Made by a program: the position numbers and the translations under genes. Below the pieces are notes generated by a model. That model ran no database searches, was not told the origin of the DNA, and saw only the letters and a list, made by a program, of their open reading frames with translations. This document shows, one piece after another, positions 31,710-37,370 of a DNA stretch of 64,000 nt. Source of the DNA: Allosphingosinicella vermicomposti (lineage in GTDB: Bacteria > Pseudomonadota > Alphaproteobacteria > Sphingomonadales > Sphingomonadaceae); NCBI RefSeq assembly GCF_003012815.1, contig NZ_PXYJ01000001.1, forward strand, positions 682,001 through 746,000, read 5' to 3'. Positions within the stretch are counted from its first letter, which is position 1. Each line of letters begins with the position of its first letter.

Positions 31710-32114
31710 ATGCAAGATAATCTTTTGGTGGTGGTCGCTGTTGCCCTGGTCGACAATGACGGGCGAATATTACTGCAGCAGCGCTCCGCTCATCGCCAAA
31801 TGGCTGGATTATGGGAATTTCCTGGCGGCAAGGTCGAGGCTGGCGAGCGGCCGGAAGAGGCGCTGATCCGCGAATTAAGGGAAGAATTGGGCATCGATAC
31901 GGATGCCGCTTGTCTTGCACCCTCAACCTTTGCGAGTGCCCCGCTGGACGACAAACACCTCCTGCTTCTTCTCTACATTTGCCGGAAATGGCGGGGCACG
32001 CCCCAGGCGCTCGATTCGGATGGGCTGAAATGGGTGCGGCCGCACGAAATGTTCGCGCTTCCGATGCCGCCCGCCGACAAGCCGCTGATCGGGTTGCTCG
32101 ACGCCTTGATCTAG
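31710..32114 (+). CDS. mutT: 8-oxo-dGTP diphosphatase (MutT)
   Basis: MutT hydrolyses 8-oxo-dGTP to prevent oxidative mutations. The 134-residue product starts MQDNLLVVVAVALVDNDGRI, has the Nudix box GGKVEAGERPEEALIRELRE followed by ELGID, and LWEFPGGK immediately before it, which is typical of MutT. AAGGA lies about 9 nt upstream of the ATG. It is divergent from the Flp genes and converges with the methyltransferase gene, the stops overlapping by 4 nt. Confidence 0.9.
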   Translation: MQDNLLVVVAVALVDNDGRILLQQRSAHRQMAGLWEFPGGKVEAGERPEEALIRELREELGIDTDAACLAPSTFASAPLDDKHLLLLLYICRKWRGTPQALDSDGLKWVRPHEMFALPMPPADKPLIGLLDALI

Positions 32115-32962
32115 CTCTTCAGAACTTCGGACAAGGACACGCGCCCGCTGCCGCGCCGCGCGGGCTTGGGCTGATCGGGCGAGGGCGCCCAGCCCGACAG
32201 ATAGACGATTTCGAATCGCTCCGCCGTGCGGCCGTCAGCATCCGCGTGCGACGCGAAGTCGGCGATGGCGGCAGCGAGGCCGGCGCGGAGAACGGGGCGC
32301 CGGGCGCGCGAGGCGAGAATATTGGTCCCGCCCATCGCACGTAAATCGCCAATCAGCCGCAACAGATGCCGGAAGCGGACCGTGATGTCCTGACTGTCGA
32401 CGACCGGCAGCGCAAAGCCTGCACGGGCTAGCAAATCCCCGGCGGAGCGGAGGTCGATCTGGGGATGGATATGCGGCGACATGGCGCCCGCGACTTCATC
32501 CGCCGCCATCATCGCGGCGCGGAGGGCGGGAAGGCTTCCTGCGCCAAGGAACGCGCCCAGGAACAAGCCGTCGGGGCGCAATAGCCGCCGGATCTGGACC
32601 AGGGCGCCGGGCAGGTCGTTCACCGTGTCGAGTACGCCCACGGACATGATAAGATCGAAGGATTGCGGCGTGAAAGGCAGTTGATCTTCCTCAGCCTGAA
32701 CGCCCCTCGTCAATTCGGCAAACCGCGCACCCGCGTCGACGGACGTCACCGCCATCCCCTGATCGCGCAGGCGGGAGGCCAGGTAGCCGCCGCCCGAGCC
32801 GAGATCGAGCACGTCATGGAAACTCCGTTGAACGAGATCCAGCCGATCGAGCAACTCCTCCGCCGCCAGCCGGTGTAGATAATCGGCATCCGCGAAGGTG
32901 CGGGCGGCGCGGTCGCGGCGCTGGCGGCGGAGCGCGCGGTCGAAGGGCGTGTCGATGCTCAC
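32111..32962 (-). CDS. SAM-dependent methyltransferase (BioC/NDUFAF5-like)
   Basis: A 283-residue class I methyltransferase. Motif I is VLDLGSGGGYLASRL, with motif II-like AVTSVDAG and the motif IV segment FDLIMSVGVLDTVNDLPG; later RRLLRPDGLFLGAFLG. The N-terminus DTPFDRALRRQRRDRAARTF and the gene neighbourhood (divergent comF, then grxC) match the alphaproteobacterial homologue of the mitochondrial complex I assembly hydroxylase/methyltransferase NDUFAF5. I chose the GTG at 32962; no better ATG lies near. The true substrate is unproven. Confidence 0.82.
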   Translation of the reverse strand: MSIDTPFDRALRRQRRDRAARTFADADYLHRLAAEELLDRLDLVQRSFHDVLDLGSGGGYLASRLRDQGMAVTSVDAGARFAELTRGVQAEEDQLPFTPQSFDLIMSVGVLDTVNDLPGALVQIRRLLRPDGLFLGAFLGAGSLPALRAAMMAADEVAGAMSPHIHPQIDLRSAGDLLARAGFALPVVDSQDITVRFRHLLRLIGDLRAMGGTNILASRARRPVLRAGLAAAIADFASHADADGRTAERFEIVYLSGWAPSPDQPKPARRGSGRVSLSEVLKS

Positions 32963-33005
32963 GGCCGGGCTTGTGCCGCGCCCGTCGCTGGATGACAAGG
33001 ACGCC

Positions 33006-33749
33006 ATGCAGGGGGTGCTTTCAAAGATTGGATGGCCGGTGCGGGCGATCGTCGATTTCGCGCTCCCGCCGCGTTGCGCGGGGTGCGGCGTCGTGACTGA
33101 CGGTCCGCACCGTTTCTGCATGAGCTGCTGGCAATCGCTTCAATTTCTCGGCGATCCTTGTTGCGCGCGCTGCGGCTTTCCGTTCGAAGTCGCGATGCCG
33201 GGCGCAAGCGAGTGCGGCGCCTGCCTTGCCGATCCGCCGCCCTTCGCGCGGCTGCGCGCTGCCGTCGCTTATGGCGACATCGCCCGGAAAGTGGCGCTGA
33301 AGCTCAAATATAGCCGCCGCCCGGGCATCGCCGAAACGCTAGCCCGCTTCATGAACCGTCACGCCGGGCTGTTCCCGCCCAATGCCATCATCGTGCCGGT
33401 GCCGCTCCACCGCTGGCGCATCTGGTCGCGCGGCTATAATCAGGCGGCGCTGATCGCCACCGCGCTCTCGCGCATGAGCGGCCGGGACGCGGACCTCCAC
33501 CTTCTACATCGGGTCAAGGCAACGCCCGTGTTGCGCGGCCTTGGACGCAGCGCCCGCGCGAGAGCGATGCGCGGCGCCTTTGCGGTGGACGCGAAGGGAA
33601 AGGCGAGGCTCGCCGGCCGTCCCGTCATCTTGGTCGACGACATTTATACGAGCGGCGCGACGGCACAGGCCTGCGCCGCCGCCTTGATTCGTGCCGGAGC
33701 GGAGGAGGTTGGCATCCTGTGCTGGGCGCGGGTGATCCGCGACGATTGA
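33006..33749 (+). CDS. comF: ComF family phosphoribosyltransferase-like protein
   Basis: ComF family proteins take part in DNA uptake in competent bacteria, though their biochemistry in others is unsettled. The product has two N-terminal zinc-finger pairs (CAGCGVV...CMSCW and CCARCGFPF...CGACL) and a C-terminal PRTase fold with VPVPLHRWRIWSRGYNQAAL and the PRPP loop VILVDDIYTSGATAQAC. I chose the ATG at 33006 (247 aa), preceded by AAGGA; an earlier in-frame ATG at 32955 would overlap the divergent methyltransferase start. dprA, another competence gene, is at 62.4 kb. Confidence 0.88.
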   Translation: MQGVLSKIGWPVRAIVDFALPPRCAGCGVVTDGPHRFCMSCWQSLQFLGDPCCARCGFPFEVAMPGASECGACLADPPPFARLRAAVAYGDIARKVALKLKYSRRPGIAETLARFMNRHAGLFPPNAIIVPVPLHRWRIWSRGYNQAALIATALSRMSGRDADLHLLHRVKATPVLRGLGRSARARAMRGAFAVDAKGKARLAGRPVILVDDIYTSGATAQACAAALIRAGAEEVGILCWARVIRDD

Positions 33750-35369: not shown

Positions 35370-35446
35370 GACCCCGTAGCTCAGCAGGATAGAGCATCAG
35401 ATTCCTAATCTGAGGGCCACTGGTTCGAATCCAGTCGGGGTCACCA
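35370..35446 (+). tRNA. tRNA-Arg (anticodon CCT)
   Basis: A 77-nt cloverleaf with acceptor stem GACCCCG/CGGGGTC, D-arm GTAGCTCAGCAGGATAGAGC, anticodon stem TCAGA/TCTGA with loop TTCCTAA (anticodon CCT, reads AGG), T-arm ending TTCGAATCC, and genomically encoded CCA. The discriminator base is A. Confidence 0.95.
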
Positions 35447-35508: not shown

Positions 35509-36480
35509 TCAGGTTTGCCGCGCCAACGGCATCGTCAGGCAATGCACGCCCCCGCCGCAGCGGGTGAATTGGCTAAGGTCAGCTTCGATCACCGTATTGC
35601 CGAGGGAGCGGAGTGTGTCGTTCACGCGCGTGTTTTCGCGGGTGGACAGGATACGTTTTGCGCCAAGGCTCAGCACGTTGCAGCCGAGCTTTCGGGCTTC
35701 CTTGTAACTGACCGGAATGATGTCGATGCCGAGCGCCGCGAGCTGGAGCAGGAGGCCGTCGTCGAGGACGTCGATGCAGGCGAGGGCGCTATTCTCCCCG
35801 GCCATGCAGAAGATGGTGTCGAGGTGCAGGAAGTGGGGGTCGTAGCGATAGATGATCGCGCGCCATCCTTTTTCCTCGAACATGCGTGCAAGGGCCGTGG
35901 CGCCGGTTTCGTCGGTGCGCTCTCCAGAACATCCGATGATGACGAGGCCGGGCCGCACGATGCTGATATCACCGCCCTCGATCGACCCGTCCTCGATCCG
36001 GCCGTGAATCGGGAAGCCATGGTCTTTTACGATGCTCGCGACATAAGGCGCTTCGGCCCGACGGTGATGGGCGGCAGGCCGAAGCTCGACCAGTCCCCAG
36101 GGCGTCATCAAAGTGGTGTCGCGCGTGAAGGCAAGGTCGGGCAAGCCGGGCTTTGCGGGCACGATATGCGTGCGCACCCCATGGTCATTCAGCAGTTCCG
36201 CAAGCCTACGATGTTCGGATCGCGCCAGCCGGGTCGAGCAGCAGAGGCCATTGCGCAGGCTTTCGCGGCTGACCGAATTGGCGGGAACGATCGCCAGATG
36301 ACAGGGCGCGGCGAGGAGGACGGTGTCGAGTACACCGGTTTCCGAACTGACCCCGGAAGCCGTTTTCGGCTGCCCGCCGCCACCCATTTGATCGCCGAAA
36401 AGCGGCTGCTCGCGGCGAATAATGAGGTCGCGGCGCCCTTCTTCATAAGCGTGAGAAAACATCAGGGTCTCGCTCACCAC
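35509..36480 (-). CDS. Arginine deiminase-like guanidine-modifying enzyme
   Basis: A 323-residue member of the guanidino-group modifying superfamily with its catalytic set intact: FTRDTTLMTPWG (Asp121), EGGDIS (Glu168, Asp171), FLHLDTIF (His219) and GGGVHCLTMPLA (nucleophile Cys314). The motifs are closest to arginine deiminase, but the extra helical domain of ArcA is absent and the length is shorter. An N-terminal Gly-rich stretch (GGGGQPKT) is unusual. The gene overlaps the stop of the upstream diiron oxidase gene; starts at GTG 36480 or 36477 (the latter in a GTGA overlap) or ATG 36462 are possible. The product could be citrulline-type; the substrate is unknown. Confidence 0.8.
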   Translation of the reverse strand: MVSETLMFSHAYEEGRRDLIIRREQPLFGDQMGGGGQPKTASGVSSETGVLDTVLLAAPCHLAIVPANSVSRESLRNGLCCSTRLARSEHRRLAELLNDHGVRTHIVPAKPGLPDLAFTRDTTLMTPWGLVELRPAAHHRRAEAPYVASIVKDHGFPIHGRIEDGSIEGGDISIVRPGLVIIGCSGERTDETGATALARMFEEKGWRAIIYRYDPHFLHLDTIFCMAGENSALACIDVLDDGLLLQLAALGIDIIPVSYKEARKLGCNVLSLGAKRILSTRENTRVNDTLRSLGNTVIEADLSQFTRCGGGVHCLTMPLARQT

Positions 36481-37370
36481 AATTCCGCCCGATAGCGTTC
36501 GAAGCAGCGCTCGCCACAGCGCAGGCGGATGAGGGCGCCCTCGGCAATCGCGGTCGCGCGGCGGGGATCTTCCGACACGAGCGGCCGCAATGCTTCCTTG
36601 TTCCAGGCCTCGCTATGTTTGACGTCCAGTACGGCGTGGAGATCGAAATAGCGGCGCTCGTCGGCCGAGAAGCCGAGGCGGCGCAGGCCCTTTGCGGTAG
36701 CGGCCGATCGGCCCGGCGCAGTGAGTTCGATCGCACCCAGCGCACCGACGCTGTGCCAGGCATAACGGCGGTTCGTCGCCATCGCGGTCATCGCATTGGC
36801 GAGCGCGAGGCTTTCCCACACGGTATTGTCGATCCGCGCGTCGAGTTGCAGCGCTTTGATGAGGCCGTCGAGCATCGGGCCGTGCATCCCCTTGGGATTG
36901 CCGCGGCCCATTTCGTCCCAGTAATTGCGGGCGAGTTCGAGCTTCGCCTGCTTGGGCAGCTTTACCTGCGTATAAGCGACGAGGTCGTCGAAACCCGCTT
37001 CGCCAGCCGCTTCCTGTTCCAGGAACCAGGTCAGGTCCTCGCGCGTCGCGTGTTCGGCAATCCAGGGGAAGAGGGGGTCGCCTTGCCCCGGGCCATCGTC
37101 CTGAAGCGCTTCGAACCAGGCGATGAAGCCTTCGACATCGGTGGGCGCTTGCGCCGCCTCGTCCATGATTTCGGCACGAAGGCTCTCAAGGAAAGCGCCC
37201 TCCAGCCGTAGCATCCGCGTGTCGCGGTCGAGCGTCTGCTGCCAATCCGCCTCCGGAAAGGCTGGGTCGAGGCGTTCGTGATTCCAGTGGGCAAGTCCGC
37301 GTTGAAAGGAGTCGGTCAGGAATTGCGACGATGACGCGGCTTGCGCCGCGTCCTTCGGCAAGGTGGCCAT
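36474..37370 (-). CDS. Haem-oxygenase-like diiron oxidase (iron-containing redox enzyme family)
   Basis: A 298-residue protein of the haem-oxygenase-like diiron oxidase family, which includes SznF, UndA and RohS. Candidate iron ligands are Glu153 and His163 (RNYWDEMGRGNPKGMHGP), Glu215 (LGAIELTAPG) and His245, Asp249, His252 (YFDLHAVLDVKHSE). The HxxxDxxH pattern, the 30-residue gap from Glu215 to His245 and the 10-residue gap from Glu153 to His163 match the spacing I recall for SznF. No signal peptide is visible. It overlaps the deiminase-like gene downstream, so the pair is translationally coupled. Substrate unknown; N-oxygenation of a guanidine is an attractive guess. Confidence 0.85.
   Translation of the reverse strand: MATLPKDAAQAASSSQFLTDSFQRGLAHWNHERLDPAFPEADWQQTLDRDTRMLRLEGAFLESLRAEIMDEAAQAPTDVEGFIAWFEALQDDGPGQGDPLFPWIAEHATREDLTWFLEQEAAGEAGFDDLVAYTQVKLPKQAKLELARNYWDEMGRGNPKGMHGPMLDGLIKALQLDARIDNTVWESLALANAMTAMATNRRYAWHSVGALGAIELTAPGRSAATAKGLRRLGFSADERRYFDLHAVLDVKHSEAWNKEALRPLVSEDPRRATAIAEGALIRLRCGERCFERYRAELW

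What the first reader, a model, noticed from the sequence alone, without database searches (positions are those of the whole stretch)
35509..37370. Coupled haem-oxygenase-like diiron oxidase and arginine-deiminase-like enzyme: a possible unexplored guanidine pathway
The two genes overlap and share a transcript. Both active sites look intact: HDO ligands Glu153/His163, Glu215 and His245/Asp249/His252 in the spacing I recall for SznF, and the deiminase set Asp121, Glu168/Asp171, His219, Cys314. SznF and RohS, the best-known members of the HDO family, N-oxygenate arginine-derived guanidines. Pairing an HDO with a guanidine hydrolase suggests oxidation of arginine, methylarginine or a related guanidine followed by hydrolysis, either as a catabolic or a signalling/natural product route. 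I know of no described function for this pairing.
Basis: partly seen in the sequence, partly recalled or inferred. Interest (0 to 1): 0.75.

Follow-up and report, generated by a model that had tools for sequence, protein, structure and literature searches.

The report
Oxygenase, methyltransferase and arginine-hydrolase gene set
Two overlapping bacterial genes encode an oxygen-using iron enzyme and an arginine-hydrolase-like enzyme; in relatives they often keep company with an N-methyltransferase, which suggests an unstudied pathway that modifies arginine or a similar amino acid.

Summary
In detail: a haem-oxygenase-like diiron oxidase (HDO, 36474-37370 -) overlaps by 7 nt an arginine-deiminase-like gene (ADI, 35509-36480 -), with both active sites intact. 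Read as a two-gene guanidine pathway it is incomplete. HDO is in 25 of 149 family genomes and is mostly not beside the ADI (1 of 80 named loci). The more constant partner is a HemK-like N-methyltransferase (MT), encoded elsewhere in this genome. HDO occurs in 17 of 19 MT genomes against 8 of 130 others. HDO, MT and ADI adjoin each other in several orders, including HDO-ADI-MT in one relative and an ADI-MT fusion beside an HDO on a Legionella plasmid. Cyanophycin (Asp-Arg polymer) genes flank the HDO in a few lineages. The HDO is closest to the lysine N-oxygenase HrmI, then RohS and SznF. Best reading: N-oxygenation plus N-methylation of arginine or a close relative, the ADI being an optional guanidine-trimming enzyme. 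The substrate is inferred. HDO+ADI pairing has a precedent, mangotoxin MboA/MboE. New variant of a known kind.

The parts
36474..37370 (-). Haem-oxygenase-like diiron oxidase (HDO), 298 aa, PF14518; ligands E153, H163, E215, H245, D249, H252
   Evidence: AlphaFold2 model pLDDT 90, Foldseek best match HrmI E=5.4e-12
35509..36480 (-). Arginine-deiminase/DDAH-like guanidine hydrolase (ADI), 323 aa from GTG; D121, E168, D171, H219, C314
36474..36480 (-). 7-nt overlap of the HDO stop and the ADI start; same overlap in the relative G053

Best explanation
The two window genes are the HDO and the ADI of a partly dispersed three-enzyme set whose core is HDO plus an N-methyltransferase (MT; in this genome at G000:C2:574806-575723, 53% identical to the MT beside an HDO on a Sphingobium plasmid). 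Most likely mechanism: the diiron HDO uses O2 to oxygenate a side-chain nitrogen of a free, arginine-like amino acid (inferred). The MT, of the NPP(Y/F) class that acts on nitrogens next to a planar group (class property recalled), methylates the same guanidino or ureido group before or after (inferred, parallel to the methylarginine that SznF uses). Where present, the ADI hydrolyses the guanidine, methylated or N-hydroxylated, to a ureido product (inferred). Shown here: gene overlap, intact active sites, HDO fold, co-occurrence of HDO and MT, repeated adjacency of HDO, MT and ADI, one ADI-MT fusion, and adjacency to cyanophycin genes and to a DctA/GltP-like transporter in some lineages. Whether the end product is a signal, a metal chelator, an antimetabolite or a nitrogen-recycling intermediate is open.
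For: HDO x MT in 149 family genomes: 17 both, 8 HDO only, 2 MT only, 122 neither, Fisher p=1.7e-14; by genus 12/7/2/75, p=6e-9. In the genus 20 of 21 HDO genomes have MT and 0 of 5 others, p=9e-5. ADI of at least 48% identity lies in an HDO+MT genome in 5 of 6 cases, p=6e-5; by genus 4 of 5, p=7e-4. Arrangements: HDO-ADI overlap (G000, G053); HDO-ADI-MT (G159); ADI-MT fusion then HDO; MT beside ADI (G114, G126); MT beside HDO in several orders. In 9 of 21 plasmid records with MT the HDO lies beside it. Arginine: cyanophycin genes beside HDO or HDO-MT in three kinds of arrangement (L199/L099/L101; L096/L174; G456). In 8 of 13 MT loci of a phylum sample a second, divergent HDO with the same E-x9-H motif precedes MT, and in G318 the neighbour is a YqcI/YcgG protein, a family that hydroxylates guanidine nitrogen (PMC12866846, abstract and passages). 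HDO fold matches begin with the N-oxygenases HrmI and RohS. MT fold matches begin with the gentamicin and aeronamide N-methyltransferases. ADI keeps the residues aligned with the DDAH active site (roles recalled). In the ADI tree 14 rows from HDO-bearing sphingomonads are split 94/96 from five others.
Against: No substrate was tested. The closest HDO acts on the lysine amine, not on a guanidine. Most HDO genomes lack the ADI; within HDO genomes its preference for MT genomes is not significant (p=0.12), and within the genus neither ADI x HDO (p=0.13) nor ADI x MT (p=0.08) is. None of these tests corrects for relatedness beyond counting by genus. In the window genome MT is unlinked and sits 3 nt behind a Mur-ligase gene. 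Eight of 25 HDO genomes lack MT; two MT genomes have no PF14518 gene. Only 7 of 80 named HDO loci hold MT and 4 of 80 cyanophycin genes, one of these about 6.7 kb off. The fusion is known from one record. The ADI of G160 lacks the catalytic Cys although HDO and MT are present. The YqcI/YcgG protein of G318 found no solved relative by sequence. The MT model rests on 7 sequences, TM-scores to its best matches are 0.50-0.63, and residues 222-236 just after the NPPY motif are below pLDDT 50.
Confidence: 0.48

Rival explanations
1. HrmI-like amine pathway: the HDO N-oxygenates the side-chain amine of lysine or ornithine to hydroxylamine or nitro; the ADI acts as an arginine dihydrolase/deiminase that feeds ornithine or citrulline, and MT methylates the N-oxygenated product.
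For: HrmI is by far the closest solved relative by sequence (profile E=2.6e-46, next 1.4e-6) and fold; the ADI has weak matches to NCBIfam's arginine dihydrolase models and to the cyanobacterial chains Sll1336 and Alr4995 (that these are such dihydrolases is recalled).
Against: The ADI-MT fusion, the YqcI/YcgG neighbour in G318 and the cyanophycin neighbours point to arginine; the ADI lies far below the arginine dihydrolase cut-off (68 of 450 bits).
Confidence: 0.25
2. Mangotoxin-like chemistry: the HDO oxidises carbon (desaturation) in an arginine residue of a peptide, possibly beta-Asp-Arg, and the ADI then converts Arg to Cit, as MboA and MboE do.
For: Published precedent for HDO then ADI on Leu-Ala-Arg (PMC13185094, section 8 read); HDO near cyanophycinase, which releases beta-Asp-Arg (PMC10206079, start of abstract in the listing; passages).
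Against: No ATP-grasp ligase or MboB-type reductase among the eight window neighbours scanned; metal-ligand spacing differs (E-x9-H here; Glu86 and His89 in MboA); HrmI and RohS lead the fold matches.
Confidence: 0.12
3. The HDO-MT set is real but the ADI is an ordinary arginine- or methylarginine-degrading enzyme that became translationally coupled to the HDO in one small clade (not exclusive of the other readings).
For: The overlap was seen in two species only; 1 of 80 named HDO loci holds the ADI; in the genus ADI shows no significant association with HDO or MT; in G169 the ADI follows a fumarase-type lyase gene, and G160 has the like nearby.
Against: Adjacency in several orders and an ADI-MT fusion; ADIs of HDO-bearing genomes group together, though taxonomy may explain part of that.
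Confidence: 0.25
4. Protective diiron protein: the HDO limits peroxide or oxidative damage, like DtpC of Acinetobacter, and its neighbours are incidental.
For: DtpC has a domain similar to HDOs needed for desiccation survival (PMC13232832, abstract and passages); the neighbours of the HDO vary between genomes.
Against: The recurring MT partner implies small-molecule chemistry; no catalase among the eight window neighbours scanned.
Confidence: 0.07

Closest known systems
HrmI / BelK (lysine N-oxygenases, hormaomycin / belactosin)
   Same: 27-28% identity over about 305 columns, TM-score 0.79-0.80 by query length, same E-x9-H spacing in the printed alignment
   Different: Those sit in nonribosomal-peptide clusters (recalled); here an N-methyltransferase, sometimes an ADI, are the partners
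SznE/SznF (N-methylarginine then N-oxygenation, streptozotocin)
   Same: SznF's HDO domain hydroxylates methylarginine (PMC13108848, section 8 read); here too a methyltransferase goes with an HDO (SznE's role recalled)
   Different: No cupin domain here; sequence match to SznF weak (E=9e-4); MT was not compared with SznE
RohS (N-oxygenase of azomycin biosynthesis)
   Same: Fold, Foldseek E=7.9e-6, TM-score 0.72
   Different: 17% identity; azomycin genes were not looked for beyond the eight window neighbours
MboA/MboE (mangotoxin)
   Same: HDO paired with an arginine-deiminase-like enzyme
   Different: No ATP-grasp ligase or MboB-like neighbour here; ligand spacing differs; the word methyltransferase does not occur in that paper's main text
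Bacterial DDAH, arginine deiminase, cyanobacterial arginine dihydrolase
   Same: Over the Pfam cut-offs of ADI and DDAH_eukar; catalytic residues
   Different: Below every curated NCBIfam cut-off it matched
DtpC of Acinetobacter
   Same: HDO-like domain
   Different: Its operon partner is a catalase

Membership tests
Haem-oxygenase-like diiron oxidases (HDO) | Six ligands, 3 His and 3 carboxylates | tested here: met
   26 of 26 aligned rows
Haem-oxygenase-like diiron oxidases (HDO) | Helical haem-oxygenase-like fold | tested here: met
   Model pLDDT 90; Foldseek HrmI, RohS, FlcD, SznF; the metal site itself was not measured in the model
Haem-oxygenase-like diiron oxidases (HDO) | Iron binding and O2 activation | not testable with these tools
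   needs purified protein
SznF type | C-terminal cupin domain | tested here: not met
   298 aa; PF14518 is the only Pfam match over its cut-off
SznF type | Seventh carboxylate ligand (3H/4C) | tested here: inconclusive
   E124 and D129 invariant but their place relative to the metals was not measured
HrmI/BelK group | Closest characterised relative by sequence and fold | tested here: met
HrmI/BelK group | Lysine-anchoring residues and lysine activity | not tested
   HrmI paper not held
Guanidine-modifying superfamily (ADI/DDAH) | Cys-His-acid active site | tested here: met
   window protein has all; 18 of 19 rows keep the Cys
Arginine deiminase ArcA, DDAH, arginine dihydrolase (NCBIfam equivalogs) | Curated score cut-off | tested here: not met
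   82 of 300 (DDAH), 74 of 489 (ArcA), 68 of 450 bits (arginine dihydrolase)
Mangotoxin mbo cluster | ATP-grasp ligases MboC/D and reductase MboB beside HDO and ADI | tested here: not met
   8 neighbours scanned, none of these; one of the 8 had no Pfam match

The most novel reading that the evidence does not exclude
A widespread, undescribed proteobacterial pathway in which one of at least two divergent diiron HDOs (or a YqcI/YcgG haem enzyme) and a dedicated N-methyltransferase turn arginine, in part drawn from cyanophycin, into a methylated N-oxy guanidine or, with the ADI, an N-oxy urea-type metabolite (precursor of N-nitroso or hydroxyurea chemistry), made outside classical biosynthetic clusters.
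Probability: 0.28. Interest if true: 0.82.

Novelty: new variant of a known kind. Interest (0 to 1): 0.6.

Why it matters
Approximately a dozen HDOs have a validated function (PMC13108848, section 4 read). A recurring HDO plus N-methyltransferase set in sphingomonads, acetic acid bacteria and other proteobacteria, with an arginine hydrolase as an occasional genetic partner, gives a short, testable list of substrates and partners for a class of HDOs that mining of recognised product clusters would miss.

Tried and rejected
A fixed HDO-ADI operon: rejected, since 1 of 80 named HDO loci carries the ADI and neighbours vary. rests's rough gene caller of my own, used again; it misplaced some genes (for example over the HDOs of L268 and L270). 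The adjacency claims rest on tblastn and on the genome search places. SznF orthology: rejected, no cupin and a weak match. Neighbours fumarase, guanylate kinase, DNA ligase, SerRS, TruB, Mur ligase and others: taken as local background. tRNA-Arg(CCT) at 35370-35446: taken as coincidence.

Rows dropped before counts: weaker ADI-family matches (9 of 15 matching genomes, identity 39% or less; 6 of 14, 35% or less) were left out of the ADI counts, which use identity of at least 47-48%. In one search, loci with identical HDO ends were collapsed, leaving 85. The genus MT count used one query at E<=1e-10; the family count used a profile at E<=1e-40. In the phylum searches at most 7 first-look candidates a genome were scored. 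A search for the ADI-MT fusion hit 18 of 398 genomes; every listed match begins at query residue 273 or later, that is in the MT half. The five MT genomes new in that call were not checked for neighbours. MT was not compared with SznE. HDO and MT were not sought on the chromosomes of the rhizobial and acetic acid bacteria whose plasmids gave ADI relatives.

Full report
Observation. They share 7 nt, as they do in G053, the closest relative found. Pfam gives PF14518 for the first and ADI/DDAH for the second. dN/dS between G000 and G053 is 0.08 for HDO, 0.23 for ADI and 0.21 for MT. Co-transcription is inferred only; one search shows no sigma-70-like site.

What the two proteins are. The HDO matches HrmI best by sequence (phmmer E=2.1e-33; profile E=2.6e-46). 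SznF (9e-4) and RohS (0.035) are far behind. The AlphaFold2 model (36 sequences, pLDDT 90) gives HrmI first (E=5.4e-12), then RohS (7.9e-6), the FlcD protein and SznF (1.5e-4), then CADD. It lacks SznF's cupin domain. The ADI matches DDAH, arginine deiminase and the cyanobacterial chains Sll1336/Alr4995, above Pfam cut-offs but far below each NCBIfam cut-off. Residues aligned with the DDAH active site are kept: R140 in 18 of 19 rows, E168, R188 and H219 in 19 of 19, C314 in 18 of 19 (the roles of the DDAH residues are recalled). This fits a substrate with a guanidine and a free carboxylate, which is inference.

How widespread. Of 149 genomes sampled from the family, 25 have the HDO and 6 an ADI of at least 48% identity; 9 more have only weaker ADI-family matches. 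Of 26 genus members, 21 have the HDO and 8 an ADI of at least 47%; 6 more have weaker matches only. In genome contigs, 436 stretches encode HDO relatives; the best 80 were kept, most of them titled as sphingomonads. One of these 80, from Sphingomonas montanisoli, has the ADI within its flanks, 1.5 kb away on the other strand. The neighbours of the HDO otherwise vary.

The missing partner. On a Sphingobium yanoikuyae plasmid the HDO follows cyanophycin synthetase, an isoaspartyl peptidase, cyanophycinase and a SAM methyltransferase, and precedes a dicarboxylate-symporter-like gene. On a Legionella plasmid the gene before the HDO encodes an ADI-like domain fused to a relative of that methyltransferase (36% identity). 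The MT was then found in the window genome on another contig, C2:574806-575723 (53%). In G159 the order is HDO, ADI, MT on one strand. Other loci have MT beside HDO or beside ADI in different orders. Among the 80 named loci, 7 hold MT with the HDO (L079, L080, L099, L101, L106, L123, L150) and 4 hold cyanophycin genes (L096, L099, L101, L126, the last about 6.7 kb off). In the plasmid collection MT is in 21 records and beside an HDO in 9: one S. yanoikuyae, six Komagataeibacter, one Variovorax, one Sphingomonas daechungensis (positions). The other 12 are eleven Sphingobium records without an HDO match (one search counts two Sphingobium records, both S. yanoikuyae) and one Novosphingobium whose HDO is on another plasmid.

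Co-occurrence. In the family, HDO and MT: 17 both, 8 HDO only, 2 MT only, 122 neither (p=1.7e-14); by genus 12, 7, 2, 75 (p=6e-9). In the genus: 20 both, 1 HDO only (an 81% complete genome), 0 MT only, 5 neither (p=9e-5). The ADI lies in an HDO+MT genome in 5 of 6 family cases (p=6e-5; by genus 4 of 5, p=7e-4). Against this, within HDO genomes its preference for MT genomes is not significant (p=0.12), and within the genus neither ADI x HDO (p=0.13) nor ADI x MT (p=0.08) is. All, whose sets were copied. None of these tests corrects for a tree.

Beyond the family. In 299 genomes drawn from the phylum MT is in 13 and this HDO subfamily in 5; both are in G000, G423 and G456. In G456 they are adjacent and divergent from cphA/cphB. 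In 8 of the 13 MT loci the gene before MT is another HDO, 439-557 aa as called, not found by the window HDO at E<=1e-5. Two of the eight were scanned and are PF14518; the others are their relatives (48-86% identity to one of the two). All eight have the same E-x9-H motif, but a longer last spacing (H-x3-D-x5-H). One of them found no solved relative by sequence. G457 has a PF14518 gene elsewhere and G318 has none; in G318 MT neighbours a YqcI/YcgG protein and an EgtD-like methyltransferase. YqcI/YcgG enzymes hydroxylate guanidine nitrogen (PMC12866846, abstract and passages); the G318 protein itself found no solved relative. Two MT genomes of the family, G013 and G125, have no PF14518 gene; in G125 MT still has the transporter beside it. 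The transporter lies near MT or HDO in 15 loci, 12 distinct places.

The methyltransferase. It has an NPP(Y/F) motif in 27 of 27 rows. Its catalytic domain matches RsmC, PrmC/HemK and N6AMT1. The model (7 sequences, pLDDT 82, residues 222-236 below 50) matches gentamicin and aeronamide N-methyltransferases best, with TM-scores of 0.50-0.63. From recalled knowledge of that class, the target is likely a nitrogen next to a planar group; a guanidine or ureido group fits, which is inference.

ADI tree. Of 19 ADIs, 14 from sphingomonads that also have the HDO (and MT, except that MT was not sought across the genome of S. montanisoli) stand on one side of a split with support 94/96, just short of the tool's own mark of 95. 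Five others stand on the other side: four from plasmids of rhizobia and acetic acid bacteria, whose chromosomes were not searched, and one from G085, which has neither HDO nor MT. Taxonomy may explain part of this. The root is a midpoint.

Mechanism and verdict. The best reading is an N-oxygenation plus N-methylation route on arginine or a close relative, with the ADI an optional last or side step. Linkage of HDO and MT is strong; linkage of ADI to them is fair, resting on adjacency and the fusion more than on counts; the arginine substrate is circumstantial. The HrmI-like lysine or ornithine reading remains a serious rival. The bare HDO+ADI pairing is not new (mangotoxin, PMC13185094, sections 8 and 10 read). 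No description of an HDO+MT+ADI set was seen in the listings of the searches, which cover open-licence papers only.

Noticed in passing
L263-L267, L271, L273, L274 (e.g. L264:7949-9400 -): A second, long HDO subfamily (439-557 aa as called) directly precedes the methyltransferase; no PDB sequence match at E<=0.1 for the one tested.
   Followed up: partly
L272:6005-8881: MT flanked by a YqcI/YcgG protein and an EgtD-like methyltransferase: a possible guanidine N-hydroxylation cluster without an HDO.
   Followed up: partly
L192, L194 (rhizobial plasmids): ADI relatives in a cluster annotated with amino-acid ABC transporter, amidase, aminotransferase and Zn-dependent hydrolase: looks like uptake and breakdown of a guanidino compound in plant-associated rhizobia.
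   Followed up: no
L225:6585-8924: In the window genome MT lies 3 nt behind a Mur-ligase-family gene; a similar-looking gene is 8 nt before MT in G053.
   Followed up: no
window 32111-33121 (-): A different SAM methyltransferase (Methyltransf_23/11), 2.4 kb from the ADI gene and next to a phosphoribosyltransferase-type gene; not of the MT family described here as far as its Pfam matches show.
   Followed up: no
L162 (G160 ADI): ADI copy with Arg in place of the catalytic Cys and a 3-residue gap at R140: probably inactive.
   Followed up: no
L240:2426-7736: G167 has two ADI copies on one strand, 2.8 kb apart, each followed by a gene of one cluster, scanned once as DUF4142.
   Followed up: no
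L197:5050-5915: The Komagataeibacter xylinus MT matches in two pieces in different frames beside an HDO.
   Followed up: no
window 35370-35446: tRNA-Arg (CCT) just downstream of the ADI gene, on the other strand.
   Followed up: no
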